From the NCBI RefSeq assembly GCF_965363235.1, contig NC_134847.1, positions 75,956,268 through 76,020,267 of the forward strand: 64,000 nt of DNA, written 5' to 3'. Below, piece after piece: positions 1,187 to 61,120 of the stretch; positions within the stretch are counted from its first letter, which is position 1; every line of letters starts with the position of its first letter. Under the pieces are notes generated by a model. That model made no database searches. It worked only from the letters and a program-made list of their open reading frames with translations, and was not told the origin of the DNA. Made by a program: the position numbers and the translations under genes. Origin of the DNA: Mytilus galloprovincialis. Lineage: Eukaryota > Mollusca > Bivalvia > Mytilida > Mytilidae.

Positions 1187-4100
1187 CTCCATGTGATGCA
1201 ATCCGAGGCGATCCTGTATAGTTTGTATATCATCATGACTTAGCGGCATAACATAACAGTCTTTAGTGTAATGTGAGTCAAACGATATGATCAGCAAAGG
1301 CTTTATAAAAATAAAAGATAAGTGAAATGATCATCCATACAATAACGTAAGGACAAAAAATTGTGAATAAACATTATACATTTTTTGAATAATTTAAATA
1401 AGCCTTAAAATACCTTATTGTATTGACATTCTGTGCCAATATGCGCGCTTTTATTAACAAATTATGTAATATGGAAATGTTTTTTTCCAACGCCGCTTTT
1501 TATGAAGGACAATCTTTTTTATGACATAATTATGATGTTATTGAATTTAGATTTTTGAGGTTGTCGGTATTATTTTGGCGCATATTTGAAATAAGAATCA
1601 GATCCAGATTAAATAAATACTAGCATTCGAATCATAGTATTTTTTTCAGCTAAAATAATCTTGTTTGCTAGCCTATTTTCAGTGACAATATCGAAACGTT
1701 TCATAGACTTGTTTTTTTTGGAGTGTTTTCGAGACGTTTGGTTTTAATATAACATTTGATTACCTCTAATGACCTTGGGTTGTAGTGAAAGTACACCGCA
1801 TGGTTTACATCTGGCTCCCTGGTAGGCTTTGGAGTAGTTGGTGTTCTAGTTGTCACTGCTGTATTTACTGACTAAATAAATTTTGAAAATCTTCGTAAAA
1901 CTATTTCTCTAAATATAAATGTATGAAATGCTTATCCTCATTTACAAATTTGAATACATTAACTGTTATGTTAAGTATCTATCTCTGCATGGAAAAAAGA
2001 ACAATCTTTGGGTTATAAAATGAGATGATTAATACATGACAACACATATCCTCGTGCACTAGACAAGACTAAAATGTCCTTTGGGTTAAAAAAAAAAGTC
2101 TCTTTAGAATCATCATTCAGATATTAAGAATATGGCAATTTTAAAATCTTTATATTTGTGTCTCAATGTGCTATTAAATTGACAGTAATTATGATTATTC
2201 TCTAAAATTTCATACAGAAATCCTAAATAAACAACTTGAAAGAAAGCGTAACTATCTTATTCGTACATTATTGTACACGTTTTTTAAAACATCTGAAAGT
2301 TTAATTATAGTCATTTGAAGAGTGACATATCGCAGTCCACCTAACCTGAACATTATCATTCAATCTTAAAGCTGTACGTTGCGTACAGGTTCAAGATACG
2401 GGCAATTTCTTATCTGTCCTGTATTTTGAATTATTCTGACTGTATACTAAAGATATTTGTAAGAACCAAACGCATGACAACACTGGCATAATGTTGTTGT
2501 TCGTGGAGAAGTAACGTTTTTGAGATGTTCAGTTTTTTATATCCTGAAAGAAAACTCATAAAAGATACCAGTCCTAAAATTTTATTGGCCAAGCGCACGT
2601 TCCTTCTACAAAATACACATAAGCGATACTCGAATAGGGAAAAAAGTAAAAGGCCAAATAAAGAATGAACATTTAGAACCATACATTCCGAAAGTTTTTG
2701 TTTTATACTAAACCGCAAAAGAAACGTTGCAGTAATTTTAGGCAAAAATGATGTAAGAATAAATGCTATATTTTTTATTGAATGGGCGTTTAAATACCCT
2801 TGTTATTTAACAAATTCACATCATTTCAGTTCATTCACTGTTCATTGATAAAGTTTTTCACCACCAAAACACATATTTAACTAATAAAGGTTACCAGTCA
2901 GTAGCGTGTGTGTCCGCCATTAGCGTTGATTACGGCCGGTATATCCTGTACATGGAATGAATCATACGGCTGATAAAGTGCATAGAAATGCTAGCCCACA
3001 CTTGCAGCAAAGATGCCTGAAATTCCACAGCAGTTGTCGTACTTGGATGGACGTCATTCAGTTTTCTCTGAATCTCGTCCCATAAATGTTGTATTGGGCT
3101 TAAGTCCAGACTAAGAGCAGGCCAAGGTATAATTGTAATGCTGTTTTGCTGAAGAAATTCCCTTGTAGCTCTAACAGTATGCGCAAGTACATTGTCATGC
3201 TGGAAAGTGTTGCTTTGATAGCGTGCAAAATGTGGCACAACATGTGGTCGCAAGAACTTGTTCGGTATACCGGGCTGCATTACCACGATTTCCTCTTCCT
3301 GATCCAAGATTCTGGAAGACAACAGGCCCTAATTTATGGTTTAAGCCGATTCCGCCCCATACAATAATGCAATGACCTCTCCATGGATCTATTTGCATAA
3401 TACAGCTATCTGCCTACTTTTCGCCCTGTCTTTTCGAGATCCGTGTCCTGCCATCTCCGTCTGCATTTAAAATGCAGGAACGGCTTTCGTCTGAAAAGAT
3501 AACCGTTCTCCACTGCTGATGTCTGGAATTTTGTCGATGGGTGCAGTCGTTCACGGCGATGACGTGGTGTGAGAATATGTCCTCTGGCACGACGACGACA
3601 ACTCAGGTTACGTGATTTCAATCGACGTCTTACTATATCACTAATTGGTCTCTGGTTCATTCCTATTGTCTGACGAGCAGTATGAGTTACACAGAGGAAC
3701 CGGTTCTACAGATGTTGTCGTAAGATGAAGCCATCTTGACGCAATGTTGTTACTCTGGAGCAACCAGTACGTGGACGGTCATTTGTACTGTTTTTTGCAT
3801 TGTGTCGTTCACTTAGACGTTGGATGGTGCGTACATTGCAGTTAAATGCATTTGCAACGACTTGAGGTCGCTGTCCAGCATTCAAACGTCCGATTGCCTG
3901 TTTTCTTTGTCGTGGGTTAAGTCGTGGCATCAGTACAGCATCAAACAGATTATGATGACGCAGACTCTTCGCACATCTTAATTACCCTTATAGAGGCACG
4001 GATTCAACGTGCATCTCATCTTCATGAAATTTGACAACGAAACGTGTCCCACAGACCCAGCGAAACCACTATTAGGACAACCGAATTAATGAACGCAATC

Positions 4101-6415: not shown

Positions 6416-6423
6416 TATAAATA
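6416..6423 (+). promoter_or_regulatory. TATA box of mex
   Basis: TATAAATA, about 80-88 bases upstream of the mex start codon. A second TATAATATAAG sequence near 6460 lies closer to the ATG than usual. Confidence 0.45.
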
Positions 6424-6503: not shown

Positions 6504-6594
6504 ATGGCTTCACTGTTTCTAGCCCTGATTTCAAGTGTTTTGGTTTTAACAAATTCTAGCGGCCATTCCTTTGTAAAACGATTTCTTTTAGACA
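6504..6594 (+). CDS. mex exon 1: signal peptide
   Basis: Thirty codons plus one base. The peptide starts MASLFLALISSVLVL, a clear signal sequence, and continues to SFVKRFLLD, where Lys-Arg could be a propeptide cleavage site. The donor is GTACGT, leaving phase 1 as all later exons require. The intron start is duplicated just downstream. Confidence 0.75.
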
Positions 6595-9500
6595 GTACGT
6601 ATATTTATGATATATTTTTTTCTTGTGGAATAAATCTTAAAATGAAGATGTTCGATTTAATGGTATTTAAGTTTTATATGACCATAAGTTACTTATGACT
6701 TTGAGAAAATGAGATAAAGGATTATCTTAATTGTGATGGAGAATTGCTTGTTAAACGGTATTCATTAATCAGTACGTACATTCATGATATATCTTTTTCG
6801 TGTAAAATCTATCTTTAGATGAAAAGGATTTAATGGTATTTTCGTTTTATCTGATTATGTTTTAAAAAAAAATAAAAAAAATAAAAAATAGACGAGTATT
6901 ATCTTTTCGACCACCAATCAAATATATAAATTAGAATATCCATAAATGTAAGCAACAGTAGGTTACTAATTTTTAAATCTTAATTGATTACGGAGACAAA
7001 TCATGTTCATTCAAACTATTAATTAACGTCCATACCATACGGCAATCTTGAAATCAAATAAACACAACGCACAAAACTTCAAATTTACACTCAAATAGAC
7101 TTTTATTTAGAATATGAATAACATATAATGGATATATAGGGTATAATTTAATGGAAAAATCCAACAACATAAATTACCCCAAAAGTTAAGCATATAACAT
7201 TCAACACTATTCAGGTGCAATACGTAAATTTCTAAATCAACTCATAATATATACCATGCTTAAAATTGGTCTCAAAAGGTCAAATTAAGTGCAGTGCGAG
7301 GTTAAAGTCTAAATTATCTAAGAAATAGTTCTAAATAAGTCTAAAAGCCGGATTCGAATGTACAACCTCAGTGTTGACTGGCGAGTGATACAGTCGTTAG
7401 ACTACTAATAACACTCGGCCACCGAAGTCTCTGAAGTAAAGGTAGACACCTGCTCCATGCAGGATTCGAATGTACAACCTCAGTGTTGACTTGCGAGTGA
7501 TACAGTCGTTAGACTACTAATAACACTCGGCCACCAACATCTCTGCTGTAAATGTAGACACGATCTTGTGCAATGTTTAGATCAAATAATAAATGATTTC
7601 AGTGCCACAATAAAATACTTGCACAAATCTGCAAAAACAAACTTAATAGATGTTTTCCCAAAAAGCACCACCGAAGCACCTGAGAACGTCCCCAGTATTA
7701 GTGGGGGTCGTGTTGCTTTGGTTTTCTATATTGTGTTTTGTGTACCATTGCTTGTCTGCCTGCCTTTGGGTTCTTTTCTAATTTAGCCATGGCCTTGTCA
7801 GGGGCTTTTTTTCGACTTTGTTTGTCCATCTGGGATCTTTCGCCCCTCTTTTGATATGCTTAAATGTTATAAAAACATTTTCTAAGCTAAGCTAAATACA
7901 AACAAATATAAAGCTAAAAGTTGTATGCTTAATAGCACCTTTATAAAGAATTTCGAGAAGTTGAATCATTCTTCTAAAACAAATTCCTATGTCCCTAATA
8001 AATGTTGTTAAAAGAGTTGACCAATTCAGGATCTCTTAATAATTTCTGAATATAAATCAAATAAAACTTTTTTTAATTCAAAACGTCACTCCAAACGCGC
8101 ATATCGAACCATTTGAAAAATGTACACTCGACAAGGTACCACTAGAATACTACCATGTTTAATAAAGAGTACCACAGCAGATTGCCGAAACCTTTACATT
8201 ACCGAAAAGTTAGCACTTTTGAGGTTGTTTCACACATACATGTATTATATTAATAATTTTGCCATTAGAGCAGTTATAAACATATGTAAAATATATAATT
8301 TTCACCACAATCAAAATATTTTTCTATCAAAAAACGTATTTCTGTTGATCAAATTGTAATCTCTTCAGATCATCTAAATGTTATTTGACATCGTGACATA
8401 AGATAGTTAATGTTTTATTTTGTTGAAATTCAGATTTAGACAAACACGAATAATTTCGAAACTACCTAAAGGTCTGACTCAAGTATTGAAATATGCAAGT
8501 CGTTAGTGGAATATTGAATACTAATAATAAGAGTTGTTCTCTTAGTGGAAACACATGATTTCCTCAAAATCTGTAAATCAAAACAGAATCTATTTATTTT
8601 CTACGTCGATGCTAGTTTTATGTTTTATTTAGTACTTTTCCCGATACAAGTGAAGATCATTCAAGTATGTATGGAACTAACTTCCTGTATGAACGTTAAG
8701 GGGCAGTATATATGATAAGATTAGGTATGGAAAATTTTCCTCTTAATTGAATTTTTATATTATAATGGAAAAAAATCAATGGATATAATCAATACACAAT
8801 TGATTCAATATTTTAACAGATATCAGTAGAATAAAATATATATTAAACCTTTCACGTCTCTCTTAAAGAAAATTTTGAAATTTTGAAATGGAGGAGATAA
8901 AAACTATATGATAAAATATTTAAGATAAATTTGCTGTGAATCAAAAAGTAAAATGCTATAAAAGTGTTTTCCTTTACAGTGAATTCACAATGCAGCTCTC
9001 ATGATTTCCATCGTAAGTAAAATTTGCAGTATAAAAACTATTATCAATCTTGTGTACATTTAATATGCTTTCCAAACCAACTAATACTCATCATGCCTGA
9101 TTAAATTCTTTGTTTGAGAGATGGAAAATGTACATGCATCGTTATCTCTTTTTGACGGAGTCTCAAATATCTAGATTTAGGTGTCAGTTTCAGACTGCTA
9201 CGACATCCCCCTCGGGGCTAGCGTCCACAATGTATCAGTTTTTGATTATGTAAGTTTATGGGGAACCTCAAGATGTAGAGCAATGATATTTGGTTAGCAG
9301 TTGTATTGGTACATCTCATTGCCGAAGAATCCAGGTGGATCTGGCCCTGTCCCATTAGTCATGAATTTATTGAATTGTGGTCAGGTGATGTTGAATGATT
9401 TGCATAGTTCACATGTTAGAGTTTATGAGATTTCCAGTCTAAGAGGAACCGCTAATGTTAAATCAATGATAGCATGCGCAGGTATTCTTTTCCAATAATA

Positions 9501-12500
9501 TTAGTTAGCTCCACCCCTATAAAGTTTCATTGACTGAATCTTTTTCATTATTTATAAGTTAAAGTTTGTGTTTATGTTAATGTCTAGAACAACACTTAGA
9601 TAAGTCAATGGTATTTTGTATTCATTTTTTATAAGCATTAGCATGTCTCATATCGATCGACATTCGTTGTTCCTTCAATATTAGTCACAGTTCATTGTCT
9701 TTGAATGTTTGACATATTCTTTGTGTTTGAAATATTGCTTTTTATTTTTAACTTTAGTCATTTGTATTTTCAAAGTATTGTTGCACATCATACAATGATT
9801 TCGATTTTTTTTTCCTGTTTCTTTTTTATTTTATTTAACAAATAACATTTTAAGCATACTGATTACATCCACGTTTGTTCTTTGTTCTTTAAAAAAAACC
9901 AGAGAGGTGGTATGACTGGCAATGAGACACTAAACGACCAAATTCAAATGAAGCAAATCTAAGCAATTAAAGGCATATGTATCAATTAAAAGAAAAAAAA
10001 ATAGTTGGAGCAAACGATTCATTGGTGTTTTCGCAAAAAAAGAATGGTGACGAAATATGTCTTATTTTAACATAAGGTTAAGTACCAACGTTTTACCATT
10101 AAATCAACTGTTCACCCTGGGTAACCTGATAATGAGTTCAACCCGGATTAAAAGTTGAATCATGTTGCTGAAAGTTTATTGGAATATTGTACTTTCGTCG
10201 TGTTCTTTTGATTATAGAATTGTCTATAAATTCTAGACCTTAACTTTTTTATATTTCAGAAATCACATCCATGATGCAGGTTTGGATAACGTATGGATGT
10301 TTAGAAGGTAAATACGTGTATGCTACGCATGAGATTCTGAAGTGTATTTCTGAATCAACCTTCAAAGATGCACAAACTTTATAAAAGCGTAGAACACTAA
10401 CAAGCTTTATTACCAACTAGGACATAAAAGTAACCAAATTTTTTTTTCTAAAGTCAGAAAAATGGGTTATCATGCATGTCAGTACCATAGACCATGAGCT
10501 GATAATAAAATAATGGGAGATAATAAGAGAAACAACAGAAACAGAAGTTTCATAAGAAATGAAAACGAAAATCTGTATAAAACAACAGTTATACTATACG
10601 GAGTAAAACTTGTTAAAATCTTTTAATAAGTCCAAAAAACACCACCTTCATCCGGAATATAAGGAACCAACGGAATATTCCGGAGAGCAAGCGAATTTGA
10701 TAGAACTTCTTATCATAGCTATCTCGTTATTATTATAGCAAAGGCAACAAAATGTTAACAGAACATTGTTATGAGGTTAGAAATCTGTTAGATATACCAG
10801 TATCACTTTTTTTAAACTGTTTTACATATGAAATATCTTTTCAAGAAAACTAATTGTTTAATATTTGAAATAAAACTTAAAGTATGAAATATTTGAAATA
10901 CCAAGGATTTTTACAAAACTGAATTTTTCGAAAAACTAAGGATTTTCTTATCCCAGGCATAGATTCCTTTAATAGCCGTCTTTGGCACATTGTTTTGGAA
11001 TTTTGGATCCTCAATGCTCTTCAACTTGTCTGGCGTTATAAATATTTTGATATGAGCGTCACTGATGAGTCTTATGTAGACGAAACGCGCATCTGGCGTA
11101 CTAAATTATAATCCTGGTACCTTTGATAACTCTATTCAAGAAACTATTTATAAAAAAGGAAGAAGTGGTATGCTTGCCAATAAGACAACTCTTCACAAGA
11201 AACCAAAATGACACAGAAATTGATAACTATAGATCACCGTACGGCATTCAACAAAGACAAAACCCATACCGCATAGTCAGCTGTAAAAGGCCAATTGATT
11301 ATTTATATAGTTTTGTTTTCTTTTTTACAGCTGTAAAGGATTTTTACCACTCTGTAACACACAATCAGAACGAAGGTATGATTTGAACAATTTTGTTACA
11401 CAAGACAAGCTTAAGACAACACGCTTGTCCTTAATGGGATGTGTTCTGGTTTAAAAATACATTTAAAGTAAATAGAAAAGCGTTCTTCCACATAAATACA
11501 AGAGGAAAATACACCGAATGTTATTTGATGCACAATAAGACAATAACTAGGGGGGAAAGCATTTTGCCTGGCCAAAATTTATTAAAACATTGCCCTGAAG
11601 CATTGATGATTTACAACTTTTTACTGTAGTTTATCAAATATCTCAAACATTATACATTACAACTAAGACTCGAAACACGAGAGTCTTATTTTGACTAAAC
11701 ACTTATGAGCTAGAATACATATCCTCTATTGCATAAACGATAGATATAAACTATGAATTAAAAAAGTGATTTTATATATTGTTTTTTATCAGTACATTAT
11801 ATTTCAGAAAAGCGATACGACTGTTTAGATTCATCTGTGAACTATGCAAGTGGTAAGGTTATACAAGCAATACCTTTACAAAGTGAATGACATATGAAAA
11901 TAACAATTTAATACATCCGTAGCGTACCTTTATTACACAGAAACGAAAAAAAGACCAAGGGAAAAAAGGGGGAAAGATACACAAACAATAGTTAAAAACG
12001 CATAGAAAATTTTTTTTATATTTTATTATACAGAAAATAGAGGATAAGCGGCTTGCACCATTTTTTTCGGACATTCAAAACACAATACAAACAAAATGTC
12101 AGGTTAAATCAATTTCAATGATGATATTCGGAAATCAGCAGATATCATATAATATAACGAAGTTTTACATCACAGTTAAAATATAATAATGTAATTTTAA
12201 TGCAGGTAACATCTCCGAAGTCAAAAACAAAGCTAAACCTCATTCTTGTATATGCCTTCAGCAGAAACACAAAAAGTCTCGTAAAAGACCTGAATGACTA
12301 TAATGTTTAAATAGAAAGAACTGAACTGTGAACGTTAAATTGCATTGCTTGCTTCATTTTTAACTTAGGAAAAAAGAAAATTAGGCAACCAAAACGACGA
12401 TTTCATGAGAAATAAAAATAGTCATAGAGGAAAAAAACAGAACTAAAAAAGCATCCACAGAAATGATATTAACAATTTTCCACAAAATATTTACAAGAAT

Positions 12501-15500
12501 CCATAAGGCATAGCATGATAAAACTTGATGCAACAGTCATGGACTTAATTACAAACATTATGTTCAAGCTATTTTCACTCTTATTATACATGTAGCCTTT
12601 TGAATCTATTTTGTTTCTGTTTTTCTGATCGTTCCTCGCCATAGTGATACAGTCCATCAAGCTATTTTTCATTCTTATTACACATGTTGCATTTTTAATC
12701 TAATTTTATCTGATAGTTCGCCACCATAGTGATACTGTGCATCAAGCTATCAACAGTCATAACAATAAGTGGTATCCCGATGGTGAGTTATAAACATACG
12801 ACATTGTTATTGTTCCGAATATATTTTAACATACCACATTGATATTGTTCCGAATAGATTTAAACATACGACATTGTTCTTGTTCGGAATAGATTTTACC
12901 ATACGTCATTGTTATTGTTCCGAATAGATTTTAACATACACATTGTTATTGTTCCGAATAGATTTTAACATACGACATTGTTACTGTTCCAAAGATATTT
13001 TAACATATGTCATTGTTCTAGTTCCGAATAGATTTTTACATACGTCATTGTTATTGTTCCGAATAGATTTTATCATACCACATTGATATTGTTCCGAATA
13101 GATTTAAACATACGACATTGTTCTTGTTCCGAATAGATTTTACCATACGTCATTGTTATTGTTCCAAATAGATTTTAACATACGACATTGTTATTGTTCC
13201 GAATAGATTTTAAACATACGACATTGTTCTTGTTCCGAATAGATTTTAAGATACGTCATAGTTATTGTTCCAAATAGATTTTAACACACGTCATTGTTAT
13301 TGTTCCGAATAGATTTTAACATACGTCATTGTTGTTGTTCCGAATATTTAGTTCCTTCTTTGTCTGATTTGTTTTTTCACAGTAATTTTTTTTCATTCAC
13401 CTCAGAATTGAATGTTTTCACTTAGGTGATGAAAGCATGTTACCTTTACATATTGCTAGAATCGCTTCGGTGCTTGTTGCTAAAATGTACTCCTCACTTG
13501 CCGTAATTTTGAATACGTTCTAAAAACAAAACTTTTGTATGCCATTTATCTAGATTTACAAACCAGTAAACCTGTAGGTCAGGTTTCTATATATTTATTG
13601 AAAATAAACACTCAAAAATTGACAACCGTGTTTGTCGAAAGAGCTTATAAAATTACATCTTCGACGCATATGTATTTCTTCAGTATTTTGTTTATGATTA
13701 TTGCTTCTCAATATAAAGTTTCTGTCCGTTCGTCTCTTTTACATTTTTGTTAGGGTTGTGTCAATCTTTCGTGTATTATTTGCCTCGCTTTACTGTGCGT
13801 TGCAGAGCTATTAATTTCATACGATATTCAACCTATCTTGATATTATAAACTATCGGTTCTAATTGGTTGTGACATGACTTGTAAAAGATTCTATTGGCT
13901 AGAATGTGATATAGAATTTAGAACATGTCCTGCACCGGACAAGATATTTGAAAATACATAAAAAAATGACAGTATTGCAATCAAGATCCGATCAAATATC
14001 CAATCAATAAATAATATGCAGTTACTCGTTTGCCTTGCTATGCCATGTTGCGTCAAATTCATTTTCATAATTTTTTTTAATATTAAGGTTATTTTGATAT
14101 TATGAAGTACTCTGTATCTTTTAAGAAAGGTTAAACTTGTGATGTTTGTGTTCCCCTAGGTCTTATACCAATTTCTCATTCTGTTTTGTTTTACATATAT
14201 AACTTTGTAATGACTTTTATTTTAGTTCATCACGTGGTTTCAAGCGCACATCATCATGACTGCACTGAAGAAGTACTTCGTTGGGTAGAAAGTATGGTCA
14301 TACATAATTATTTTATACGTACAACATAAGGCGGTATGAATTTTATTGAGACAACTCTTCAAAAATTTCAAAAGGAAAGAATTTAAAGGATATAGATCAA
14401 CGTACGGCCTGCAAATTTGAACAGGAAATCCTAATTGTATAGTCAGCTATAAACGGCCCCTATACGAAAAAATCAACAGCTCGATTTAAGAAAGATGAAG
14501 GACAGCCACCAACTACAACCTGAATGACAGGATCATTTGACAATATAAAAGTTGTGTGTACCTTATACTTTTTATAATGCTTATCTTGTAAAAACCGATA
14601 TCATCTTCTTCACATCATATATTATCAAGAGTCAATTCACGGAGACAGTCATTAAACGAAGTGCAAAAGATTATCACAATATCATAAGATTATGCTTTAA
14701 ACCATTATTGAAAACATTTTCAGAATTTTTTTGTAACAAAGGTTCCATAATTGTAACGCTTACTTTGAATAATTTTGTTTAATGTATTTTAAAAGATCTA
14801 ATAAAGACAACTACTGCCAAAGCTACAACGATAAATGCTGTAACTACTATGACTACTGGTGGAATTAGTACAACTTCCCAATCAAGTGTGCCTGTTACCA
14901 ACACGAACAGTGGTAAACAACTTTTTACGCAAAAAAAAAATAAACAAAGGCGTCCATTGAAGAGAATTAATGATAGTCAATATAAAAAAGGAAACCTCAA
15001 TTTAAGAAAGATGATGTTTCTATACACACTACACAATAAGCGTGAAATTCTAATAAAATTGAGAATGGAAATAGGGAATGTGTCAAAGAGACAACAACCC
15101 GACCATAGAACAGACAACAGCAGAAGGTCACCAACAGGTCTTCAATGCAGCGAGAAATTCCCGCAGCCGGTGGCGTCCTTCAGCTGGCCCCTTAAAAAAT
15201 ATACTAGTTCAGTGATGAACGCCATACTAAACTCCAAATTGTACAAAAGAAACTAAAATTAAAAAAAGAACAAGACTAACAAGGGCCTGAGGCTCCTGAC
15301 TTAGGACAGGCGCGAAAAAGCGGCGGGGTTAAACATGTTTGTGAGATCTCAACCCTCCCCCTATACCTGTAGCCAATGCAGAAAAGTAAACGCATAACAA
15401 TACGCACATTAGCATGCAGTTAAAGAGAAGTCCGAGTCTGATGTCAGAAAAGTAACTAAAGAAAATAAACAAAATGACAATAATACACAAATAACAACAG

Positions 15501-18500
15501 ACTACTAGCAGTTAACTGACATGACAGCTCCAGACTTCAATTAAACTGATTGAAAGACTATGTCTTCATCATATGAATATCAGGCACAATCCCTCCCATT
15601 CGGGGTTTAGTATCATACCATCATAACACATATGAGAAGAACATTACCCGTGTCATGCCAACAACTGTTTGTTTTAAATAAATGTGTTTATCATATGTTT
15701 AGTAGTAAATACAGTAGTTTTGCATATGTGATAAATAGCCTGCTGTTTAATCCATATCTTGCAACTTTGATGCGCACCCTTTATCGCATACCCTTTATCA
15801 CACCCCTACCCTTCATCACACCCCTACTTGGTATGCGACGTCACGAACGTCAAGTTTTCATATTTTTTGGCACACTAAATGCAACTATAAAAAATACAAA
15901 ACACACAAAAAAATACAACAATAAACATAATATTTTTAAAAGAACAGCACGCAAATTGTAAGGTAACTCATGTGCTTCAGATAAATAATTGAGCAGTTCT
16001 TTTAAGGTTTTTGAAGCAAGATAAAAGTAGAACTGAAGGTAAACTAGTGCTATGGATCAGAAAATAGTTCATATAATATAATACTCTCCTGTTAAAATAT
16101 ATGATAAAGCGTATAAAACATAGCAAAATCCGTATCACACGCCGTATCTCCCTCGAGTCTCAAGGCCCTTGGGCTGATATTGGTGTCTCGGGATGATACA
16201 ACATATTATACGGATTTTGCCATGTATTATTCTCTATCTAGTTCCGATGCAAAAACCCTATAAGTGAATCAATATTAACGCCAAAATATGAAATCTTTAA
16301 TGACCTGACAGCAGTATCGTAACTATATCTCTTTTTATATTTAAAGGTTTTGTTAGCTTTATATATATAATAACTATATAAACAAAGAGCCAAAAAACGA
16401 AGGAGATTGTCACACTCCAATAATCGAAAATAGGCGACATCGTAACAAAAAAATACTATATCAGTACAGAAATACAACACTGTAACCTAACGATTGAGCA
16501 ACACAAACTTCAACTAAAACTTTTGTTGAACTCATGTGATCCGTAAGCGTAGGCATTACAAATGAAATAACGTCATGGACCTATAATGTATACAATTTAA
16601 TATAACAAAAAAATAGACTTGTCCTGTTATTTATTTTTATCATATGTTTAGTACAAAATACAGCAATTTTGTATATCCAATAAAGGTTCTTTTTTTCCCA
16701 GTTTGTATCACCTACCCTGTATCGCATACCCCGTATTGCATGGCTAAACCCGTATCGCATACCCTGTATGCATGCATAGAAAATTTGGAATAGAAGCCAA
16801 AAGATTAAAATATCGACTATGATTGGTTCTGGATAGTTCGCTAGTTCTTGCAGACCTGCACATTTTGATGTGCCTTTAATCCTAACTGTACCTATTATCA
16901 ATAATTGTCATTAGTATGTATATAGTATGACCAAAGACCGAATGGACGGCTCATTATAGAATTCATTTTACTTTCTTCACTGTGCTTAAACGGCTGTGGG
17001 TAACTTAAGTTACCCACAGCCAAAGATGGCGGACTCTAAACTCGTTGATATTTAATTCATACAAAATGTACCTTTTGCGACGTTTTTCATGCAGAATGTA
17101 AATATTTATAGGATTATTGAATAAAAAAATGACTAACAATTACCATAATTTTTTTAATATAGAGTTCACTAAAGCGCAAGGTCAACTTTAAAAAATGCAT
17201 AAGATGTCCGTAACTTTTTTATCGAAACTAAGCAGACTGTCCGTAACTTTATTTTTAGATGTGGGTAACTTTTGATTTAAAATTTTAAGAATTATAATTT
17301 CAACAATTAGAAGACAATTAACATCATATTTGTAACCTTCGCGGCCGTTCATACTACTCATTCACCACCAAATGTGATTTTATTAACGCATCATACTTAA
17401 ACCACAGAAGTTTTATGTGGGGTTTGTGGTACTCCATCCTGGTTATGGTTTGAACTTTTATTTACTGATGTGCGTCTTATCGACGTTTTTCGCTTGTCAG
17501 ACCAAGGCTTTTCCATACTCTTTAATGTTTTGAGTTTAATTATATGTTTGCGGTTTACCTTCACCTCTGCTTCTTTCTATGTGTATTTTGATGAATATTC
17601 TTTGACGCGGCTCGGTATTTATACATCCCACCAGTTAGTTATAGTGTTATGATTTTTTGAATAGGTTTCCTAGTATGTTTTTTTTTCTCTCTTTGTATGT
17701 TATCAGGGGTTGTTAGACTATTAAATTACCCTGTTGTCCTACGTAGTTATTTATATTTTTATATACTATGTCGAATTGTTACACTATGTTGACTGCTCTT
17801 TTCCTTTTATTGTCACTGACTTTTACCTATTGTGTCTTTTAGTTTTATTCAGTTTAATGAGATTTAATGCAACTTGCATACAAATGAAATATTCAGCTAG
17901 CTGTAAAACTAGGTTTATTCATTTATACAAAATGTCCTTTTTTTTTGTTTCTTGCAGCCAATCAGTGTGACCAAGTGACTAATAAAAATCGTGAGTGTTT
18001 CATATAAGTGAGAGGTTTAGAGCTAAAAAAAAGAGATTCAATCCACAATTTTCTACATTTAAAAATGCCATTACCTTTTCAGGAATATAAGAGTTGTTGT
18101 CCATTCGTTTGATGTGTTTTGTCATTTGATTTTGCCATTTGATTAGGGACTTTACGATTGAATTTTTCCTCGGAGTTCAGTATTTTTGTGATTTTACTTT
18201 TTTGTATTTTTTATGATATTTTTAAGAAAAAAAAGCAGTTTTTATAATTCATAGAATGAGCAGTATAATGCATTTTCTCAGTTTATGAATACATATATAT
18301 CTAATTATGTTGATTTTTGTGCACTTCTATTTATATTTTATCGCCTAAAACATAATTTTGATTATCGTTTTTTAATCATTCCATCAATATGGACTAAGAC
18401 AAGTCAACATTTACTTACCTATAAAACCAGGTTTAATCTACCATTTTCGACATAAGAAAATGCCTGTCCCAAGTTTAGAATATGACAGTTGTTACAAATA

Positions 18501-21500
18501 CGTTTCATTTGTTTGAGCTTTTGATTTCGTCATTTGATAAGGGACTTTCCATTTTGAATTTTCCTCGGAGTTCAGTATTTTTGATATTTTACTTTTTGGT
18601 AACTTGGCATATAGTATTTTAAAACTGTTTAAACTGATTTAAGTGTAATTATAAAAAAATCATGAAAGTCATCATGAAAAGTCATCATAATAAAATCATA
18701 AAAAAAAAAATCATAAAAAAAGTCATAAAAGTCAACATTAAAAAGGAGGCTGTGACATGATTGCCAATGCAATGAGACAATTCTACTAATCTTTGAAAAT
18801 CTTGCTTTATGGTATTGATATATTATATCTGAAACAGTTTAGAAGAGGTAGTATGTGTAACACAATAAATATCACTTCAATATTATCATTTTAGCAAAAA
18901 GGAATGTTGATATCCTAATACGTTTATAATTTTAATAGTTCGTGGATAGTCAGGTCAACAAAAAAAGAAATTGATAAATTAGTCGTGCACTAAGATAAGT
19001 TTTGTTTAAAATATGTCAACTTAATTGAACATTGATTCACATTGATTCATAAGTAGATTGTACACACGAACCACCCAATATTTATTGTTTCAATTTTTAA
19101 GAACTTCTGGCTTAACGGATCATCGTATTTATCGTTCCCATTCTCAACAGACGTGACTTCGTATGTATACATCCTTGTGAGTCCAAACTGATGTTTCTTT
19201 TTAGAATTTGTTATAATGTCGGATAAGAAAACCCAAGGTTAATATATACCTATATCCAATTCAACCCTTTTGTTGTTGTGCTAAAATAAATCTTATAGAA
19301 ATACCCAGCTTCATTTTATTGTAAATTAAAAAAAAAAGGAAAAACCATAAAAAAAAGTTAAAAATATTACCAATCCTTTAAACAGATAACAAATAAATGT
19401 CAAAATCCCGAATTAGTACAGACATTTTCCAAAGATAATATATGGTTAAAAGATATTGTATAAATATGGACCCTTTAAATAGTTATCAAAGGTACCAGGA
19501 TTATAATTTAATATGTCAGACGCACGTTTCGTCTACATAAAACTCATCAGTGACGCTCATATCCAAATATTAAAAGTATGACATTTAAATCATTATAATT
19601 TTACAGATATTGGTAAGTATAAAAATTGAAGTGTAACGCCTAGATTCTATTATATTTCTCTAATCTGAATAATTCCCTTTTTATGAAGCATAGCATGGTT
19701 TTGAATATTAAAACAACTGATTTCTGTTGTTAAGTTTATAACAAAATATATGAATTTTACTTTGAATTACTAATTATTATCCTAATTTGAAACATTGTTT
19801 TTTTTTCAAATGTTAGGTGAATTGCGATATGTGCGAGAAGGTATCGCATGCAATTTATGTGTAATGTTATTTCATTGACATAACATTAAGTGTCCCATCG
19901 TTTTCAAAATATTAAAAATGATTATATGAATGGTAACTAACGCGTTATCTGATAGACTTTTGTTAGATTTTCTTAAAGAAAAATTGATTAGATTTGAAAA
20001 CAAATTCTTTTTTTGACGAGTTTATGTTTTGATTTCTTTTCAATAAGTTAACTACCTTTATGACTATTTTAGATATTGGGATTAAAGTTGTCGGTAGTTT
20101 GATAGTTATTTGCTACTTTGAGATATGTGTGCTTGAAATAAAAGATGTGAAGAACAAAATCATAGCTTTACTCAACCCTAGATTAAAGAGAATTTGTCTC
20201 TTTTCCTGTTTACTCTTTAATCTTAATACACTTCTACCTATAACAATTGTTGTTGCTTTCTATCTTACAGATGCTATTGTATTGTTGAATGGACTTATCA
20301 GGCACACTCATTTTAGCGGTATGTTTTAAATCAGTAAGGATATCAGTGTTAATGAAGTCGACAGTAATTTTACCAATGTTCAAATATTCTTATAGGAAGA
20401 ATCAAGGAAGACTAAAAAAAACCTACAATAATCTGATGAACAGCAAAAAGAACGAGACCGAGTGTGTTGTCAAGAAAAACGTTTCCTTCTATCTATAACC
20501 ATTAAATATTGACAGTTATTTTTTTTAGAATCTTATCAGGCTGCCAACTCAAATATAAAATATAATCAATCCAAAGATATACCATACAAAACTTTTTTTT
20601 TCTTTGTTTTACATTTTTAGAAATAATTCGGTACACAATCCCACCCAAAACATTATTCTAAACAATAGTTTTTGGTTACATCAATCATCTTTTTCAATTA
20701 AACAAAGATGTTCAAGAAATTTTCTAATTTTTGACAAATTATTAGGCAAATCAACATGACATGATCTATTACATTTTTACAAACTAAAAATAAATACGCC
20801 TACAATCTGCTGATACCTGTATCTTGGCATTGCACAAGGTCATATTTTCCTCTAACTGTTTATGTCCATTGGATTTTGGATGTGTTCTGATTGATAATTT
20901 AGTCTTCGATGCACGATTTCTTTTATTAGTTGTAAGTGGTTTTGAACTAGCTGTCGGTAACTGTGAGTACTCTCAGAGTGTCTTTTTGTTGTCGTAAGTA
21001 CCCAAACACATCCACTCTGTGTGTTTGTTAGATATATTTCTATTTGTATCCATGTGATAAGTTGAGCCTTTTTCAAATGATGTTTATAGTTCGTTCATAT
21101 GTTGTACTGTTACAGCCCTCACTGTTCCAGGTTAGGGGATGATTGAGAGCCCGCTAACACATCTAACCCCGTCACATTCTGTATGTTTGTATGTGTCTGT
21201 TCCAATTCTGGAGCCTATAAATCAGTGGTTGTCGTTTGTTGATCTGTTTCATATTTGTTTTTCGTTCATTTATTGTACATTTATTATGTCGTTAGTTTTC
21301 TCGTTTGAATAGTTTTACATTTGCATTTTGGTATATTTTGACTTTGTCCTCTTCACTCATTCGTAAAAGTAGTGTTTTTCAATTAATTTAGATATCAAAT
21401 ACATTGTGTTGAATCTAATTCGTTTATGTCTCCTTGTTAAATTTTATTTAATAGACATTTTGGAACTCATTACATGACTTTTTTTCTAAATAATACATTG

Positions 21501-24500
21501 TGTGAAAAACAAATATTGCGTGCTGTTGATAGTGCAACATATTTCAAAGATTGCGAAGTACATGAATACTGTCTTGATACAGTGATAATTTATATAGTAC
21601 ATTAACAGGCAACCCAATGTAAAGCGTAATTATTGATGAAGAAAATTAAAACAGAAAACGGTAAAACATTTAGGTCACATTCGGCAATGATTTAATTTTG
21701 GATGTAACGCGTCTTCCGATTGGCTGACGTTATTTTGTTATCAGACCATAGACATAATTCAGTCAAGTGACCGTAACGTCATCAAAGTTTTTTCAAGGTT
21801 TATTACGGTTTAAAATGGAATTTAGAATTAAATTATAAGAAATGACTGTAATATTTTTTCTGTGTATTCGAAATAACATAACAAATGTGGTGCACACTGT
21901 TAAATAACCTACTACGAGCGTTATTCAGTGTGCAACACATTTTTTATGTTATTTCTTCATAGACAGAAAAAATATTACAGTCATTCCTTAAATGTCAAAA
22001 TTTCATCGGAAGTTGTTGAGATTCCTTCGATATATACAGTATATGTATTTTCCTACAAACAATAGAAATCATTGTTGACATTGTTTGATTTAGTAACAAA
22101 ATGTTTTATTTGTAGTGGTTGAGAAACTTTACTTAGAACTAGCTCTAGGCTTTTCAGAGCATACAGCGATTGGTCGGTGCCACACTCGTATGTTTATGTT
22201 TATGTCACATATTTTATAATAGAAAAATCTAAATTTACTATTTTATGTTGGGGAAGATGAAGGTGTCACACAAAACCATGATAACTTCAATCATAAAAAA
22301 CTTAATACAATATTCGTTATTTTCTGTTATGAATAAATTATTTCCAGCCTATATATAACCTAAGTGAACGAAGAGCATCTCGATTCGTCAGCAAAAACTA
22401 TTTAGAATAAAAAACACGTGAAATACACTTCGACATATGGTGATTTCAAAATTCGGCTATGAATAAGTTGAACTTTGTAAATGAACGAATGCAATACGTA
22501 ACGTTTAAAGATGTTAAAGATTTCACAGTGATACAATTAAAGCAAAAATTTCCTTTGCAGGTCAAACAGATGTATTTACAGAATGTAAGTTTAAAAGTGT
22601 ATTACTTTTGTAGATGGTTTACTTTTTATCATTGCAATTTATTGTTCATAAACAAATAAAGTTATTTTCGATAATCATAGAGTCATTTAGTATGTTTAGA
22701 ATACAATATTGCAAATCAAACGTGTTTTTGCAAACTTTTACACTAAAAGAGGGGTGAAAAATACCAGAAGGACAGTCAAACTCATAGATCGAATCTAAAC
22801 TGACAGCGCAACGACTAGACATGAAAAAGACAAACAGACAAATAATAGTACACATGACACAACATAGAAAACTAAAGACTAAGCAACACGAACCCCACCA
22901 AAAACTAAAAGTAGTTTAAACTTAAGAAAATTGAGCTGCATCTAAATGGAGATAAAAACATTATTTAAAATAGGATTTTGATTTTCGATGAGAGTGTCAT
23001 TTTTGTACTCATACTTGGTCAACAAAAGTCAAAATTTCAGACTCAGGACATTTGAAGACATCAATGATCTGTTCACATGTTCACAATTATGCTGTTAAAT
23101 TGAGTACAAATCTTATATTACTCATGTCACGCTGTGATACTGGTAATTTAAGTTAAGATTGTAATAAATGACCCTAGTTTGGAATAAATTCGAAATTGTT
23201 AACTCGTATTAATGAACAACTATTTGGTGTTATAGTCAACATTTAAACACTATGAAAGAGATTCTTGTCGTTACAAATTTGTAAAACTAACAACATAATC
23301 AAACACAACTGAGGGTCACTTTTTGAAATTACAATATGTTTCATTGCATGGGATAGACAGGATTGTTACTGGTATACATAAACAAGCGCACAAAAATCTC
23401 TTACCTTGAACTAAATCGACAGCAACACAAACACCTATAATGTTTGAAAGAAAATGACTGTAATAGAATAAATTAAGTACATACATTCTATTCTTTATTA
23501 TGCCATCCTTCTTAGTGTCGATTTATGAGTTTGACTGTCCCTCTTGTATATTTCGCCCCTATTTTACACTGGTGAAAGTTCTGACTTACAATTTTTCCAT
23601 AGTATATACCTAATATTCTCCTTCAGTTGAAAAAAAACACGTCTAACACCAACGATTTAATAAAAGTGTAGTTTGATCTTGAAATGAAATATTTTTTTTC
23701 AATAAGGTTTCGCTTTGATAAGAAGATGTAGATATAATAAGATCACCTGTATGTCGAGATATCACTTATAAGGAATGAGAAATCGGAAATATGTCAAAGA
23801 GACAACAACTGACAGAAAACAATGAGTAGGTTTAATTCGGAAGTTCTCGTTACGTTGAAAAAAATATTCTTATAAAATTCTGATAGCACTGTCATCTTGA
23901 ATTTTACCATTTGAGCCTAAGAATGAACATTGATGAGTACTCGGTAACAACTCCTTTTTGTATTGTGTTGACTTTGGGATTTAATGTAAAAAAAACTCTT
24001 TAAAATGTATTTGTTATAAAACATACTGCTATCGTTAAATATCCTTCCTATTTTATCACAGATAACAATATCAAAAATTACATACTAGGAAATATGAATG
24101 AGATTTGTCGCCAGGACATATATACATGGATAGAAGGTACTGTTTGAAAACAAAATAGGGAAACTATCATTTAGCGAGTCGATTTTTAAAAAGGGTGAGG
24201 TATGAAATTACATAATAAGAGGCAAAGCAAAGATAAGGATTAAGGTAAGCTTATCGATAAACTTAATCCCTTGCAATCATATTTTATAAACAATTATACT
24301 AAACATATGCACATATTATACAGAACCACTGTAAATTGTTTGGTCATTAAAAAAAACTACCTGTACGCAGACACACATCCTATTGTTAATAGAGGAAACG
24401 GGCGTTTTTATACCTGTTCTTATGTACATTATGAATTCACACACACACTTAATGTGATCTTTTAATCAACATCATCTTTATCATATAAATAACTGTTTTC

Positions 24501-24566
24501 TTAACAATGACTTATAGTTTTATGCTTTTTACAGGTCAAGCTAAGCTACATGGTGCCTCTGGATAA
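6504..24566 (+). CDS. mex: multi-microexon gene for a two-domain secreted protein
   Basis: Core model of 15 exons: 6504-6594, 8980-9012, 10260-10307, 11331-11375, 11808-11852, 12717-12782, 14226-14291, 14796-14912, 17958-17990, 20271-20318, 22116-22187, 22561-22584, 23041-23103, 24062-24136, 24535-24566. Every internal exon enters in phase 1 and leaves in phase 1, so the reading frame closes exactly: 858 nt, 285 residues plus stop. The product has a signal peptide with a downstream Lys-Arg, domain A (4 Cys), a Thr-rich linker, domain B (4 Cys) and a short tail ending HGASG. Both domains end in a Cys followed by Trp-(Val/Ile)-Glu. The start at 6504 has A at -3 and G at +4; an in-frame ATG at 6477 is less likely. 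I do not recognise the family. Secretion is inferred from the leader. Many short symmetrical exons resemble the layout of schistosome micro-exon genes, but no homology is claimed. The weakest exons are 22116-22187 and 23041-23103. Confidence 0.7.
6590..6865 (+). repeat. Tandem duplication over the mex exon 1 donor
   Basis: The sequence from the exon 1 donor (GTACGTATATTTATGATATA) through ATTTAATGGTATTT recurs about 180 bases downstream, starting near 6773 with GTACGTACATTCATGATATA. The second copy keeps a GTACGT donor but lacks the exon coding end. Confidence 0.6.
7350..7572 (-). repeat. Two tandem tRNA-like units (SINE head or tRNA pseudogene)
   Basis: Two copies of a unit of about 112 bp. 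Each holds a 74-nt core (7423-7350 and 7535-7462) that reads on the minus strand like a degenerate class II tRNA: GGTGGCCGAGTG, an A-box-like start, and CATTCGAATCC, a B-box-like end. The cores differ at about one position. The arms do not pair well enough for a functional tRNA, so a tRNA-derived SINE head is the better reading. Confidence 0.55.
7675..7855 (+). repeat. Dispersed repeat family A
   Basis: Contains GTGTACCATTGCTTGTCTG and ends in TCTTTCGCCCCTCTTTT, like the copies at 5061 and 33535. It accounts for the short open frame here. The intron from 7856 to 8979 shows nothing else that I recognise. Confidence 0.7.
8980..14291 (+). CDS. mex domain A, six microexons
   Basis: Exon sizes are 33, 48, 45, 45, 66 and 66 nt. 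8980-9012 reads NSQCSSHDFH (acceptor cctttacag, donor GTAAGT). 10260-10307 reads ITSMMQVWITYGCLE (atatttcag, GTAAAT). 11331-11375 reads VKDFYHSVTHNQNE (cttttttacag, GTATGA). 11808-11852 reads KRYDCLDSSVNYAS (tatatttcag, GTAAGG). 12717-12782 starts RHHSDTVHQAINSH and ends KWYPD (tctgatag, GTGAGT). 14226-14291 starts HHVVSSAHHHDC and ends EVLRWVE (ttttattttag, GTATGG). For the last exon a GTAGAA donor seven bases earlier would give phase 0 and is less likely. The four Cys could form two disulphides. No known family is recognised. Confidence 0.7.
9240..9505 (+). repeat. Possible degenerate repeat in mex intron 2
   Basis: Holds two loosely similar blocks, one with GGGGAACCTCAAGATGTAGA and one near 9437 with AGTCTAAGAGGAACCGCTAA. 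The short open frame 9301-9498 has no splice sites or leader that fit mex. Its nature is unknown to me. Confidence 0.25.
9895..9985 (+). repeat. Dispersed repeat family E fragment
   Basis: Recognised by GGTGGTATGACTGGCAATGA. Other members contain the motif GATTGCCAATGAGACAA or close variants (11150-11310, 14320-14480, 18740-18800, 24775-24900). Confidence 0.65.
10880..11310 (+). repeat. Repeat families D and E side by side
   Basis: Family D (10880-11135) contains TTTTCTTATCCCAGGCATAG and GTAGACGAAACGCGCATCTG, and matches 34040-34290 over its whole length. Family E follows at 11150-11310, with CCGCATAGTCAGCTGTAAAA, and ends only about 20 bases before the acceptor of mex exon 4. Confidence 0.75.
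12560..12755 (+). repeat. Tandem duplication of mex exon 6, first copy dead
   Basis: The segment of about 90-100 bp around exon 12717-12782 is duplicated just upstream. The exon copy at 12632-12663 keeps CGCCATAGTGATACAGTCCA but has GATCG where the live copy has the acceptor GATAG, and it breaks off early. Confidence 0.6.
12795..13350 (+). repeat. Minisatellite, 35-bp unit, 16 copies
   Basis: Sixteen head-to-tail units starting like CATACGACATTGTTATTGTT and continuing into a GAATAGATTTTAA end. Unit length is 34-36 bp. Units 2-4 (from 12830) reappear as units 9-11 (from 13074), a higher-order period of about 244 bp. The array begins 12 bases after the donor of mex exon 12717-12782. Confidence 0.9.
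14320..14480 (+). repeat. Dispersed repeat family E
   Basis: Diverged copy with GAGACAACTCTTCAAAAATT, ATCAACGTACGGCCTGCAAA and TAGTCAGCTATAAACGGCCC, in the intron before the Thr-rich exon of mex. Confidence 0.65.
14796..14912 (+). CDS. mex exon 8: Thr-rich linker
   Basis: 38 codons, entered and left in phase 1 (acceptor attttaaaag, donor GTAAAC). It reads LIKTTTAKATTINAVTTMTT and continues with more Thr/Ser, a mucin-like stretch likely to be O-glycosylated. It lies between domains A and B. The open frame continuing past 14912 enters repeat family C and is not coding. Confidence 0.65.
15050..16350 (+). repeat. Dispersed repeat family C, split by an insertion
   Basis: Family C starts with TTGAGAATGGAAATAGGGAA and includes GGTCACCAACAGGTCTTCAA and GGGGTTTAGTATCATACCAT. 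A second copy at 40312-41000 shows the undivided order. Here the repeat stops near 15690 and resumes near 16233 with GTTCCGATGCAAAAACCC, so about 540 bp was inserted. The insert holds TATCGCATACCC-type motifs and the inverted pair CAAAATCCGTAT / ATACGGATTTTG. A related piece lies at 16611-16770. Confidence 0.7.
16611..16770 (+). repeat. Second copy of the TATCGCATACCC element
   Basis: TATCATATGTTTAGTA with repeated GTATCGCATACCC-type motifs matches the left part of the insertion at 15690-15835. Class unknown. Confidence 0.5.
16992..17021. repeat. Perfect 30-bp palindrome
   Basis: The half site GGCTGTGGGTAACTT is followed at once by its exact reverse complement, with TTAA at the centre. The motif GTGGGTAACTT recurs near 17262. 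It could be two abutting transposon ends. The rest of 17022-17950 shows no gene. Confidence 0.85.
17958..24136 (+). CDS. mex domain B, six microexons
   Basis: Exon sizes are 33, 48, 72, 24, 63 and 75 nt, all phase 1-1. 17958-17990 reads NQCDQVTNKN (tttcttgcag, GTGAGT). 20271-20318 reads AIVLLNGLIRHTHFS (tatcttacag, GTATGT). 22116-22187 starts VEKLYLELALGFSEHTAI and ends GRCHT (tttatttgtag, GTATGT). 22561-22584 reads QTDVFTE (tcctttgcag, GTAAGT). 23041-23103 is SGHLKTSMICSHVHNYAVKL (aaaatttcag, GTACAA). 24062-24136 starts NNIKNYILGNMNEICRQD and ends YTWIE (ttttatcacag, GTACTG). Sizes follow domain A (33/48/90/132 against 33/48/96/138 after summing pairs), and matching positions hold N-x-C starts and C-x-W-(V/I)-E ends. 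This is an internal duplication. Confidence 0.63.
18030..18600 (+). repeat. Two direct copies of repeat family B
   Basis: Copies at 18030-18215 and 18415-18600, both ending in CTCGGAGTTCAGTATTTTTG. They lie in a mex intron. A short family E fragment follows at 18740-18800. Confidence 0.75.
18895..20093 (+). CDS. Candidate optional microexons of mex
   Basis: Four further phase 1-1 candidates between the 33- and 48-nt exons of domain B. 19205-19237 has a strong acceptor (cttttttag), reads FVIMSDKKTQ and has a weak donor GTTAAT. 19607-19612 is a 6-nt exon, ATATTG, between ttttacag and GTAAGT. 20073-20093 reads IGIKVV with a weak donor GTAGTT. 18895-18921 reads KRNVDILI with a weak donor GTTTAT. 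Any of them can be included or skipped without changing the frame. Only the 6-nt exon has two strong splice sites. They may be alternative exons, fossil exons or chance. Confidence 0.3.
19470..19570 (-). repeat. Repeat family D fragment
   Basis: Minus-strand piece: TATCAAAGGTACCAGGATTA on the plus strand is the complement of the family D end seen at 11120 and 34270. Confidence 0.65.
21673..21990. repeat. Fold-back element
   Basis: Arms of about 70 nt at 21839-21908 and 21920-21989 pair with each other. The left arm starts GAAATGACTGTAATATTTTT and the right arm ends with its complement. The small loop contains CTACTACGAGCG. The flank with GATGTAACGCGTCTTCCGAT probably belongs to the same element. 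It looks like a non-autonomous DNA element. Confidence 0.7.
22745..23580. repeat. Repeat family A copies in a mex intron
   Basis: 22745-22915 is a minus-strand copy, with AGAGGGGTGAAAAATACCAG and ACACGAACCCCACCAAAAAC. 23515-23580 is a plus-strand fragment with ATGAGTTTGACTGTCCCTCT. The 63-nt exon candidate 23041-23103 lies between them. Confidence 0.7.
24535..24566 (+). CDS. mex terminal exon
   Basis: After a strong acceptor (gctttttacag) the exon reads QAKLHGASG and a TAA stop, in phase with the GAA-G end of the previous exon. Confidence 0.65.
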
Positions 24567-24900: not shown

Positions 24901-25279
24901 TGTTTCATATTCTTTTATATTATTCATTTTAGTTCAGTTAAAGTTATGTGTCTTTTATTTTATGCCTGGTTCAAAGTGTTGATATTTTTATCTGTTCTTT
25001 TTGTTTGTCTTCTTAAATTATAAATTTTGATTGGTGGATTTTTTTAAACCGTGTCTACTATGTCACGTGTTGAATACTTGTCTTTGAACTTGGGGGCATT
25101 TTTTGTTCATGGCATATCTGTAAAGATTTTCTTAATTCATTGACATCTCTAATTTTTGGACTCGAAAAGATATGATTGTTTAGATATTGATCTGTTGTTG
25201 AAACCTGTATTTCAACTCTAGTTTGTTATAAATAAGACGTTGAAAGGGGTGATTTGTTTGTCTTTTTATATCGTTTATC

Positions 25280-47245: not shown

Positions 47246-47707
47246 TACCAGACACCGTTGTCGAAACTCCGGTCAATGTACTGGTAGTTTGGGGGGGACT
47301 TAAGGGTAGTGACCCATCTAAGAGATAGTCCGAACCAGGAATACTTACATACGGACTATTCAAATTAAAGTCCATAATAAATTTTACTTTAGTCAAAAAC
47401 ACAAATAATTTGTTTAGAAATTTAAACAAAACAAGGGAATATATTTCCAATAAAATACACAATATATATGAAAAGCAATTAAGCTATTCAAAAAACTAAA
47501 CACTTCTCTGTTGAATCTGTAAAACTTGATGTGCACGTGTGACCGATGTCGCAGATGGAAATTGAATGGAAGAATATGGGCAAACAGGGGTATATGTCCG
47601 GACCAGTGAGAGTACGTTTATTTTTAGTTGGGATTTTCCATCTGACCTATGACGCAATTGGGGTTACACTCAGAATTTATGATGGTAACGTATTTATAGC
47701 TATAAAA

Positions 47708-60961: not shown

Positions 60962-61120
60962 TTTTTCTTGCTGAGGTTGTTTCTGCTGTTCCAACTGATT
61001 ACAATAATTTTTATACATTATATATAGCAGTTGCCCTGGATTTCCTGTGCAGATCGTGCGACACCGATTGGCTGGCTTTACTCAAGTATTTCGATCGTTT
61101 CGGTGGTGTACACGGTCGTG

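What the first reader, a model, noticed from the sequence alone, without database searches (positions are those of the whole stretch)
6504..24566. A mollusc gene built from at least 15 tiny, symmetrical phase 1 exons for a secreted protein
Thirteen internal exons of 24-117 nt all start and end in phase 1. They are spread over 18 kb between a signal-peptide exon and a 32-nt terminal exon, and the frame closes exactly at 285 residues. Any exon could be skipped or added without a frameshift, which suits protein diversification by splicing. The layout resembles schistosome micro-exon genes, yet I recognise no family. A standard ORF search shows almost none of it.
Basis: partly seen in the sequence, partly recalled or inferred. 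Interest (0 to 1): 0.85.

Follow-up and report, generated by a model that had tools for sequence, protein, structure and literature searches.

The report
Mussel-like gene of tiny phase-1 exons
This stretch very probably holds a real animal gene for a small secreted protein whose coding sequence is cut into about fifteen tiny exons that all break codons at the same place, a layout so far best known from blood-fluke and aphid secreted proteins; no RNA was available to prove how it is spliced.

Summary
On the + strand, 6504-24566, I recover 15 coding exons: a signal-peptide-like exon, 13 internal exons of 24-117 nt, each phase 1 at both ends, and a 32-nt terminal exon. They encode 259 residues, not the 285 claimed. 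Nine internal exons have splice scores of 6 or more; exons 7, 8, 10 and 11 are weaker, and 8, 10 or 11 may be wrong. Symmetric splice pairs with an open phase-1 frame are enriched: 10 of 28, against 0 of 16, 0 of 7 and 1 of 16 in three controls. TATAAA and a poly(A) signal frame the model. The scoring also ranks exons of a neighbouring arginine kinase gene first. The protein reads as two modules joined by a Thr/Ser linker, both ending in C-x3-[VI]-x2-W-[VI]-E at an exon border. No Pfam or PDB relative was found. The layout resembles schistosome micro-exon genes and, more closely, aphid bicycle genes, whose internal exons mostly start at codon position 2. Membership in neither is shown: 5 of 13 internal exons are under 36 nt, and there is no CYC motif. 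Expression, alternative splicing and species are untested.

The parts
6416..6421 (+). TATAAA, likely TATA box, 88 nt upstream of the start codon
   Evidence: motif scan; role is inference
6504..6594 (+). exon 1 (91 nt): ATG, signal-peptide-like MASLFLALISSVLVLTNSSG and a KR pair
   Evidence: hydrophobic N-terminus (no signal-peptide program on hand); A at -3 and G at +4 around the ATG
8980..9012 (+). exon 2 (33 nt), first Cys of module A
   Evidence: splice score 6.6
10260..10307 (+). exon 3 (48 nt)
   Evidence: splice score 7.3
11331..11375 (+). exon 4 (45 nt)
   Evidence: splice score 12.5
11808..11852 (+). exon 5 (45 nt; an in-frame alternative acceptor at 11793 gives 60 nt)
   Evidence: scores 7.0 and 10.7
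12717..12782 (+). exon 6 (66 nt), His-rich
   Evidence: score 7.0
14226..14291 (+). exon 7 (66 nt), ends module A with CTEEVLRWVE
   Evidence: score 3.9; similar to exon 14
14796..14912 (+). exon 8 (117 nt), Thr/Ser-rich linker, splice sites weak
   Evidence: splice score 0.5; phase-1 frame open
17958..17990 (+). exon 9 (33 nt), first Cys of module B
   Evidence: score 10.3
19205..19237 (+). exon 10 (33 nt), uncertain
   Evidence: score 4.2
19817..19840 (+). exon 11 (24 nt), uncertain
   Evidence: score 1.8
20271..20318 (+). exon 12 (48 nt)
   Evidence: score 10.0
22561..22584 (+). exon 13 (24 nt)
   Evidence: score 7.5
24062..24136 (+). exon 14 (75 nt), ends module B with CRQDIYTWIE
   Evidence: score 6.0; similar to exon 7
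24535..24566 (+). exon 15 (32 nt), terminal exon with TAA
24600..24609 (+). ATTAAATAAA, likely poly(A) signal, starting 34 nt past the stop codon
12620..12665 (+). imperfect copy (85%) of the exon 6 acceptor and exon start, 85 nt upstream; the acceptor AG reads CG, so probably a dead partial exon duplicate
   Evidence: repeat family D8; sequences printed

Best explanation
A real, intact protein-coding gene of about 18 kb that makes a small secreted protein. The signal peptide is removed on secretion and a KR site may trim a short propeptide (inferred). The mature protein is two modules, probably helical, joined by a Thr/Ser-rich, probably O-glycosylated linker (inferred). Module A (exons 2-7) has four Cys; module B (exons 9-14) has two, in the positions of A's first and last, so the likely pairing is C1-C4 and C2-C3 in A and C1-C4 in B (inferred). 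The modules probably arose by duplication inside the gene. Because every internal exon of the model is symmetric phase 1, an exon can be lost, duplicated or skipped in frame, so the gene can diversify in evolution and, possibly, by splicing. Shown here: exon chain, phases, enrichment, start and end signals, similarity of exons 7 and 14. Inferred: expression, secretion, fold, disulfides, any use of exon skipping.
For: Exact frame over 15 exons with a stop in the last. Symmetric splice pairs with an open phase-1 frame, score 6 or more: 10 of 28 pairs in the region, against 0 of 16 on the opposite strand, 0 of 7 and 1 of 16 on the two strands of 24.6-42.3 kb; 9 non-overlapping exons against a Markov mean of 0.67 and maximum of 3 in 30. 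The same matrices, with lengths 60-400 nt allowed, put arginine kinase exons at the top of the open-frame pairs of 55-60 kb on the minus strand; two of these frames are confirmed by Pfam. TATAAA at 6416, A at -3 and G at +4 of the ATG, ATTAAATAAA at 24600. Exon G+C 0.38, intron 0.31. Exons 7 and 14 share C-x3-[VI]-x2-W-[VI]-E at the exon end: ungapped score 32, reached by 9 of 20,000 shuffles. Modules A and B aligned end to end beat all 2000 shuffles; without the uncertain exons 10 and 11, 3 of 2000 shuffles do as well.
Against: No transcript evidence. Exons 7, 8, 10 and 11 have weak splice scores, and unlisted phase-1 candidates such as 21116-21130 (15 nt, 7.9) and 19607-19612 (6 nt, 6.4) score as well as accepted exons. 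The best local alignment of A with B is reached by 104 of 2000 shuffles, exon 2 with 9 by 448 and exon 3 with 12 by 1910 of 2000, so only the exon 7/14 match stands out; it is the best of 66 pairs among 12 exons, about 0.03 after correction. Open frames and intact AG/GT were search conditions, so they are not independent proof of an intact gene. No homologue found, so conservation is untested. Splice matrices are approximate, recalled frequencies, loosened once.
Confidence: 0.82

Rival explanations
1. An ordinary constitutively spliced secreted-protein gene. Phase-1 symmetry is the usual class 1-1 signature of extracellular genes that grew by exon duplication, and no exon is skipped in practice. 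(This rival concerns splicing only and can be true together with the best explanation.)
For: Symmetric phase-1 exons are common in extracellular proteins (recalled, from no call). Exons 7 and 14 suggest module duplication. An 85-nt-offset partial copy of exon 6 shows that exon pieces are duplicated. The six Cys lie one each in exons 2, 3, 5, 7, 9 and 14, so dropping one of these would leave an odd Cys.
Against: Thirteen internal exons of median 45 nt is unusual for a plain secreted protein (inference); the in-frame alternative acceptor of exon 5 at 11793 scores better than the one at 11808.
Confidence: 0.5
2. Only part of the chain is right: the nine strong exons plus exon 7 belong to the gene, while one or more of 8, 10 and 11 are decoys and true exons may be missed.
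For: Scores 0.5, 4.2 and 1.8 for exons 8, 10 and 11; unlisted candidates score 4.4-7.9, for example 13554-13577, 20930-20962, 9301-9384, 19607-19612 and 21116-21130.
Against: Each of the three keeps the frame (but was searched for on that condition); exon 8 is Thr/Ser-rich like a linker; module B aligns better with A when exons 10 and 11 are kept.
Confidence: 0.4
3. A chance chain or a dead gene.
For: No transcript or homologue; introns full of repeats.
Against: Enrichment over shuffles, other strand and another stretch; start and end signals; exon 7/14 similarity.
Confidence: 0.08

Closest known systems
Aphid bicycle genes (Hormaphis cornu and relatives; PMC9168663, passages seen)
   Same: Many unusually small internal exons, almost all starting at codon position 2, which is the phase found here; N-terminal signal sequence in many; no sequence homology to described proteins; a Cys-bearing unit that can be multimerised. 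The published structure-only classifier, computed here from its printed coefficients, gives 0.77 for the 13-internal-exon model against its cut-off of 0.72.
   Different: No CYC motif here; one gene seen, family size unknown; the classifier value runs from 0.43 to 0.94 with the exon choice, 4 of 8 variants above the cut-off, and in the passages I saw it was applied to aphids and related insects only. Similar layout is not homology.
Schistosome micro-exon genes (PMC4671649 passages; PMC4350168 passages)
   Same: Signal peptide mostly in the 5' exon, much of the coding region in small symmetric exons, small secreted product without known family; O-glycosylation predicted there for some, inferred here.
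   Different: There the central coding portion is mostly micro-exons under 36 bp between long flanking exons; here 5 of 13 internal exons are under 36 nt, coding 147 of 780 nt, and the coding parts of the end exons are 91 and 32 nt. Described as apparently restricted to platyhelminths. No isoform evidence here.

Membership tests
Schistosome micro-exon genes | central coding portion mostly of micro-exons under 36 bp | tested here: not met
   5 of 13 internal exons, 147 of 780 coding nt; definition from a passage
Schistosome micro-exon genes | most internal exons of length divisible by 3 | tested here: met
   13 of 13 in the model, 9 of them with splice score 6 or more. The model was searched for under this condition, but the class is enriched over the others
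Schistosome micro-exon genes | signal peptide in the 5' exon | tested here: met
   by hydrophobicity of residues 1-15 only; no signal-peptide program on hand
Schistosome micro-exon genes | two long flanking exons | tested here: inconclusive
   coding parts 91 and 32 nt; close promoter and poly(A) signals suggest short UTRs, but transcript ends are unknown
Schistosome micro-exon genes | alternative splicing gives several protein variants | not testable with these tools
   no RNA data
Schistosome micro-exon genes | sequence similarity to a known micro-exon gene family | not tested
   no such sequence was fetched
Aphid bicycle genes | many small internal exons that start at codon position 2 | tested here: met
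   13 of 13 in the model; feature
Aphid bicycle genes | published structure classifier above 0.72 | tested here: inconclusive
   0.77 for the main model; 4 of 8 variants above the cut-off, range 0.43-0.94
Aphid bicycle genes | CYC motif | tested here: not met
   no CYC in the 259-residue product; the paper reports homologues without it
Aphid bicycle genes | shared intron positions in structure-aware alignment | not tested
   no bicycle sequence was fetched

The most novel reading that the evidence does not exclude
Molluscs have their own, independently evolved class of multi-micro-exon genes for secreted proteins, with the same phase-1 layout as schistosome micro-exon genes and aphid bicycle genes, so this architecture is a recurrent way to build fast-evolving secreted proteins and not a mark of parasite or gall effectors.
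Probability: 0.35. Interest if true: 0.72.

Novelty: new variant of a known kind. Interest (0 to 1): 0.55.

Why it matters
In the papers that my searches listed, micro-exon secreted genes come from flatworms and sap-feeding insects, where they are tied to the host interface. A free-living animal with the same layout would let one ask whether the layout is driven by conflict with hosts or microbes, or simply by exon duplication in secreted proteins. Such genes are nearly invisible to ORF searches and probably easily lost by annotation pipelines, so a structure-based scan of bivalve genomes could uncover a hidden family.

Tried and rejected
Paralogues inside the window, by tblastn of the spliced protein (best 40 rows shown): its own exons, the partial exon 6 copy at 12631, a short exon-5-like peptide at 25159-25185 (E 1.5), and otherwise weak hits that I judge chance. 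Missing exons of module B with a [YFW]-x-C-L-[ED] motif like exons 3 and 5: none between 17990 and 24062 on either strand. Homology of exon 3 with 12 and of exon 2 with 9: not supported by shuffles. A run of minus-strand phase-1 pairs at 40-56 kb is mostly the long open frames of a retroelement, except two pairs at 49512-49724 that I cannot explain. Pfam hits at E 0.028-1.3 are below the curated cut-offs; PDB hits for modules A and B at E 0.22-2.2 are judged chance. One scan of viral contigs with 25 bases of exon 7: 0 matches. An alignment meant to show the exon 6 duplicate laid the overlapping stretch on itself and is useless; replace it. Rfam: 0 matches at gathering score.

Papers. 'micro-exon' + Mytilus 0; 'micro-exon genes' + mollusc 5, on schistosomes, a tapeworm or parasites by title; 'symmetrical exons' + 'micro-exon gene' 4, on schistosomes by title; 'microexons' + bivalve 0; a broader search 9, none on molluscs by title; 'microexon-rich'/secreted/phase 1 swamped by unrelated papers, 15 of 20,251 listed; bivalve/lineage-restricted/secreted 9, none on such genes by title; 'microexon' + mussel 1, on another subject by title. 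For these searches I saw listings only, except that passages of two papers were then read; the library holds open-licence papers only. The idea that this is the mussel vdg3 gene was a guess: 7 papers were listed, none was read and no sequence compared.

Full report
The observation. Reading 5500-26000 and listing phase-1-to-phase-1 stretches between AG and GT brings out a chain of small exons on the + strand. Joined, they give 780 coding nt and 259 residues with one stop, at the end of the last exon: exon lengths 91, 33, 48, 45, 45, 66, 66, 117, 33, 33, 24, 48, 24, 75, 32. The 13 internal exons are each symmetric and phase 1.

Is it more than chance? With approximate splice matrices (recalled frequencies), nine internal exons score 6 or more (exons 2-6, 9, 12-14), and four score less: exon 7 3.9, exon 8 0.5, exon 10 4.2, exon 11 1.8. 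At a combined score of 6, non-overlapping open (1,1) exons number 9 in the region; the other eight phase classes on the same strand have 0-4, the same class on the opposite strand 0, and in 24.6-42.3 kb 0 (+) and 1 (-). Thirty first-order Markov copies have a mean of 0.67 and a maximum of 3. At score 4 the contrast is smaller: 16 against 4-10 in the other classes of the same strand. Counting splice pairs without removing overlaps, 10 of 28 are symmetric with an open phase-1 frame, against 0 of 16, 0 of 7 and 1 of 16 in the three controls. An earlier, stricter matrix left few candidates: 3 pairs in the region, readable as (1,1), and, on the minus strand of 24.7-64 kb, 9 pairs with 3 of the (1,1) class.

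Positive control. The same matrices, with exon lengths of 60-400 nt, applied to the minus strand at 55-60 kb put exons of an arginine kinase gene at the top of the open-frame pairs listed (5.5-11.4). Two of the frames match the ATP:guanido phosphotransferase families at 3.5e-21 and 6.1e-12; the other exons are assigned by recall of arginine kinase sequence. A sliding count over the window shows the plus-strand phase-1 run in the windows that cover 4-28 kb; a minus-strand run at 40-56 kb lies mostly in the long frames of a retroelement, but two pairs at 49512-49724 do not.

Start and end. TATAAA lies at 6416, 88 nt before the ATG at 6504, which has A at -3 and G at +4; ATTAAATAAA starts at 24600, 34 nt past the stop. 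Exon G+C is 0.38, intron G+C 0.31. Introns run from 398 to 3045 nt.

The protein. Exon 1 encodes a hydrophobic signal-like stretch followed by a KR pair. Exons 2-7 form module A with four of the six Cys and 13 of the 17 His; exon 8 is a Thr/Ser-rich linker; exons 9-14 form module B with two Cys; the last exon adds ten residues. Exons 7 and 14 both end in C-x3-[VI]-x2-W-[VI]-E; a slightly looser form of this pattern occurs nowhere else in the six frames of the window, though the pattern was drawn from these two. Their ungapped score of 32 was reached by 9 of 20,000 shuffles and by 0 of 2000 in gapped tests; as the best of 66 pairs among 12 exons this is about 0.03 after correction. Modules A and B aligned end to end beat all 2000 shuffles; without exons 10 and 11, 3 of 2000 shuffles do as well. 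The best local alignment is reached by 104 of 2000, and the other proposed exon pairs (2 with 9, 3 with 12) fail. An internal duplication is therefore likely but rests mainly on one exon pair. That B keeps only two Cys, near its ends, suggests C1-C4 and C2-C3 pairing in A (inference).

Exon duplication. A 46-nt stretch at 12620-12665 is 85% like 12705-12750, which spans the acceptor and start of exon 6. In the upstream copy the acceptor AG reads CG, so it is probably a dead partial exon copy. This fits a gene that gains and loses small exons.

Relatives. Pfam gives nothing above cut-off for the whole protein, either module or variant models, and PDB sequences give nothing below E 0.2 for the two modules. 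No eukaryotic genome or transcript collection was on hand, so conservation and family size are unknown. The window's own genome is not held.

Comparison. Passages of PMC4671649 describe micro-exon genes as long end exons around a central coding part mostly of exons under 36 bp, with the signal peptide mostly or wholly in the 5' exon; passages of PMC4350168 say most of the coding region is very small symmetrical exons, that products bear signal peptides, and that the genes appear restricted to platyhelminths. Here 5 of 13 internal exons are under 36 nt, so the size criterion fails. [quoted passage not shown] Applied here, it gives 0.77 for the main model (cut-off 0.72) and 0.43-0.94 over eight variants, four of them above the cut-off. 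There is no CYC motif. The gene is thus built like these genes, without evidence of common origin.

Verdict. A real small-exon secreted-protein gene is the best reading (0.82). That its exons are used combinatorially is open. My paper searches found no micro-exon gene in a mollusc (listings only, open-licence papers only).

Noticed in passing
window 55818-60994, minus strand: Arginine kinase gene with exons in mixed phases (Pfam ATP-gua_Ptrans and ATP-gua_PtransN in two frames; the outer exons, with a first coding exon near 60802-60994, are assigned by recall); used as positive control.
   Followed up: partly
window 42187-47752, mostly minus strand: Retroelement with a reverse transcriptase frame (RVT_1), other long overlapping frames and the same peptide encoded in opposite orientation at both ends (42187-42313 minus, from 47555 plus), so inverted ends; looks DIRS-like by recall.
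   Followed up: partly
window 12793-13346: Array of about 16 copies of a 35-nt unit in intron 6, starting 11 nt past the end of exon 6.
   Followed up: no
window 25159-25185, plus strand: Peptide DSKRYDCLD resembles EEKRYDCLD of exon 5, 0.6 kb past the gene (E 1.5; DNA printed); chance or a remnant exon copy.
   Followed up: no
window 2930-3328, minus strand: Transposase remnant, DDE_3 below its curated cut-off (24.6 against 28.6 bits).
   Followed up: no
window 49512-49724, minus strand: Two symmetric phase-1 splice pairs of score 7.9 and 8.6 outside any long frame; unexplained.
   Followed up: no
window 11041-11131 and 19481-19571: A 91-nt inverted repeat pair (92%) in introns of the gene, probably copies of a dispersed element.
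   Followed up: no
window 19607-19612: Possible 6-nt micro-exon (ATATTG, score 6.4) between exons 10 and 11, in phase 1; could be chance.
   Followed up: no
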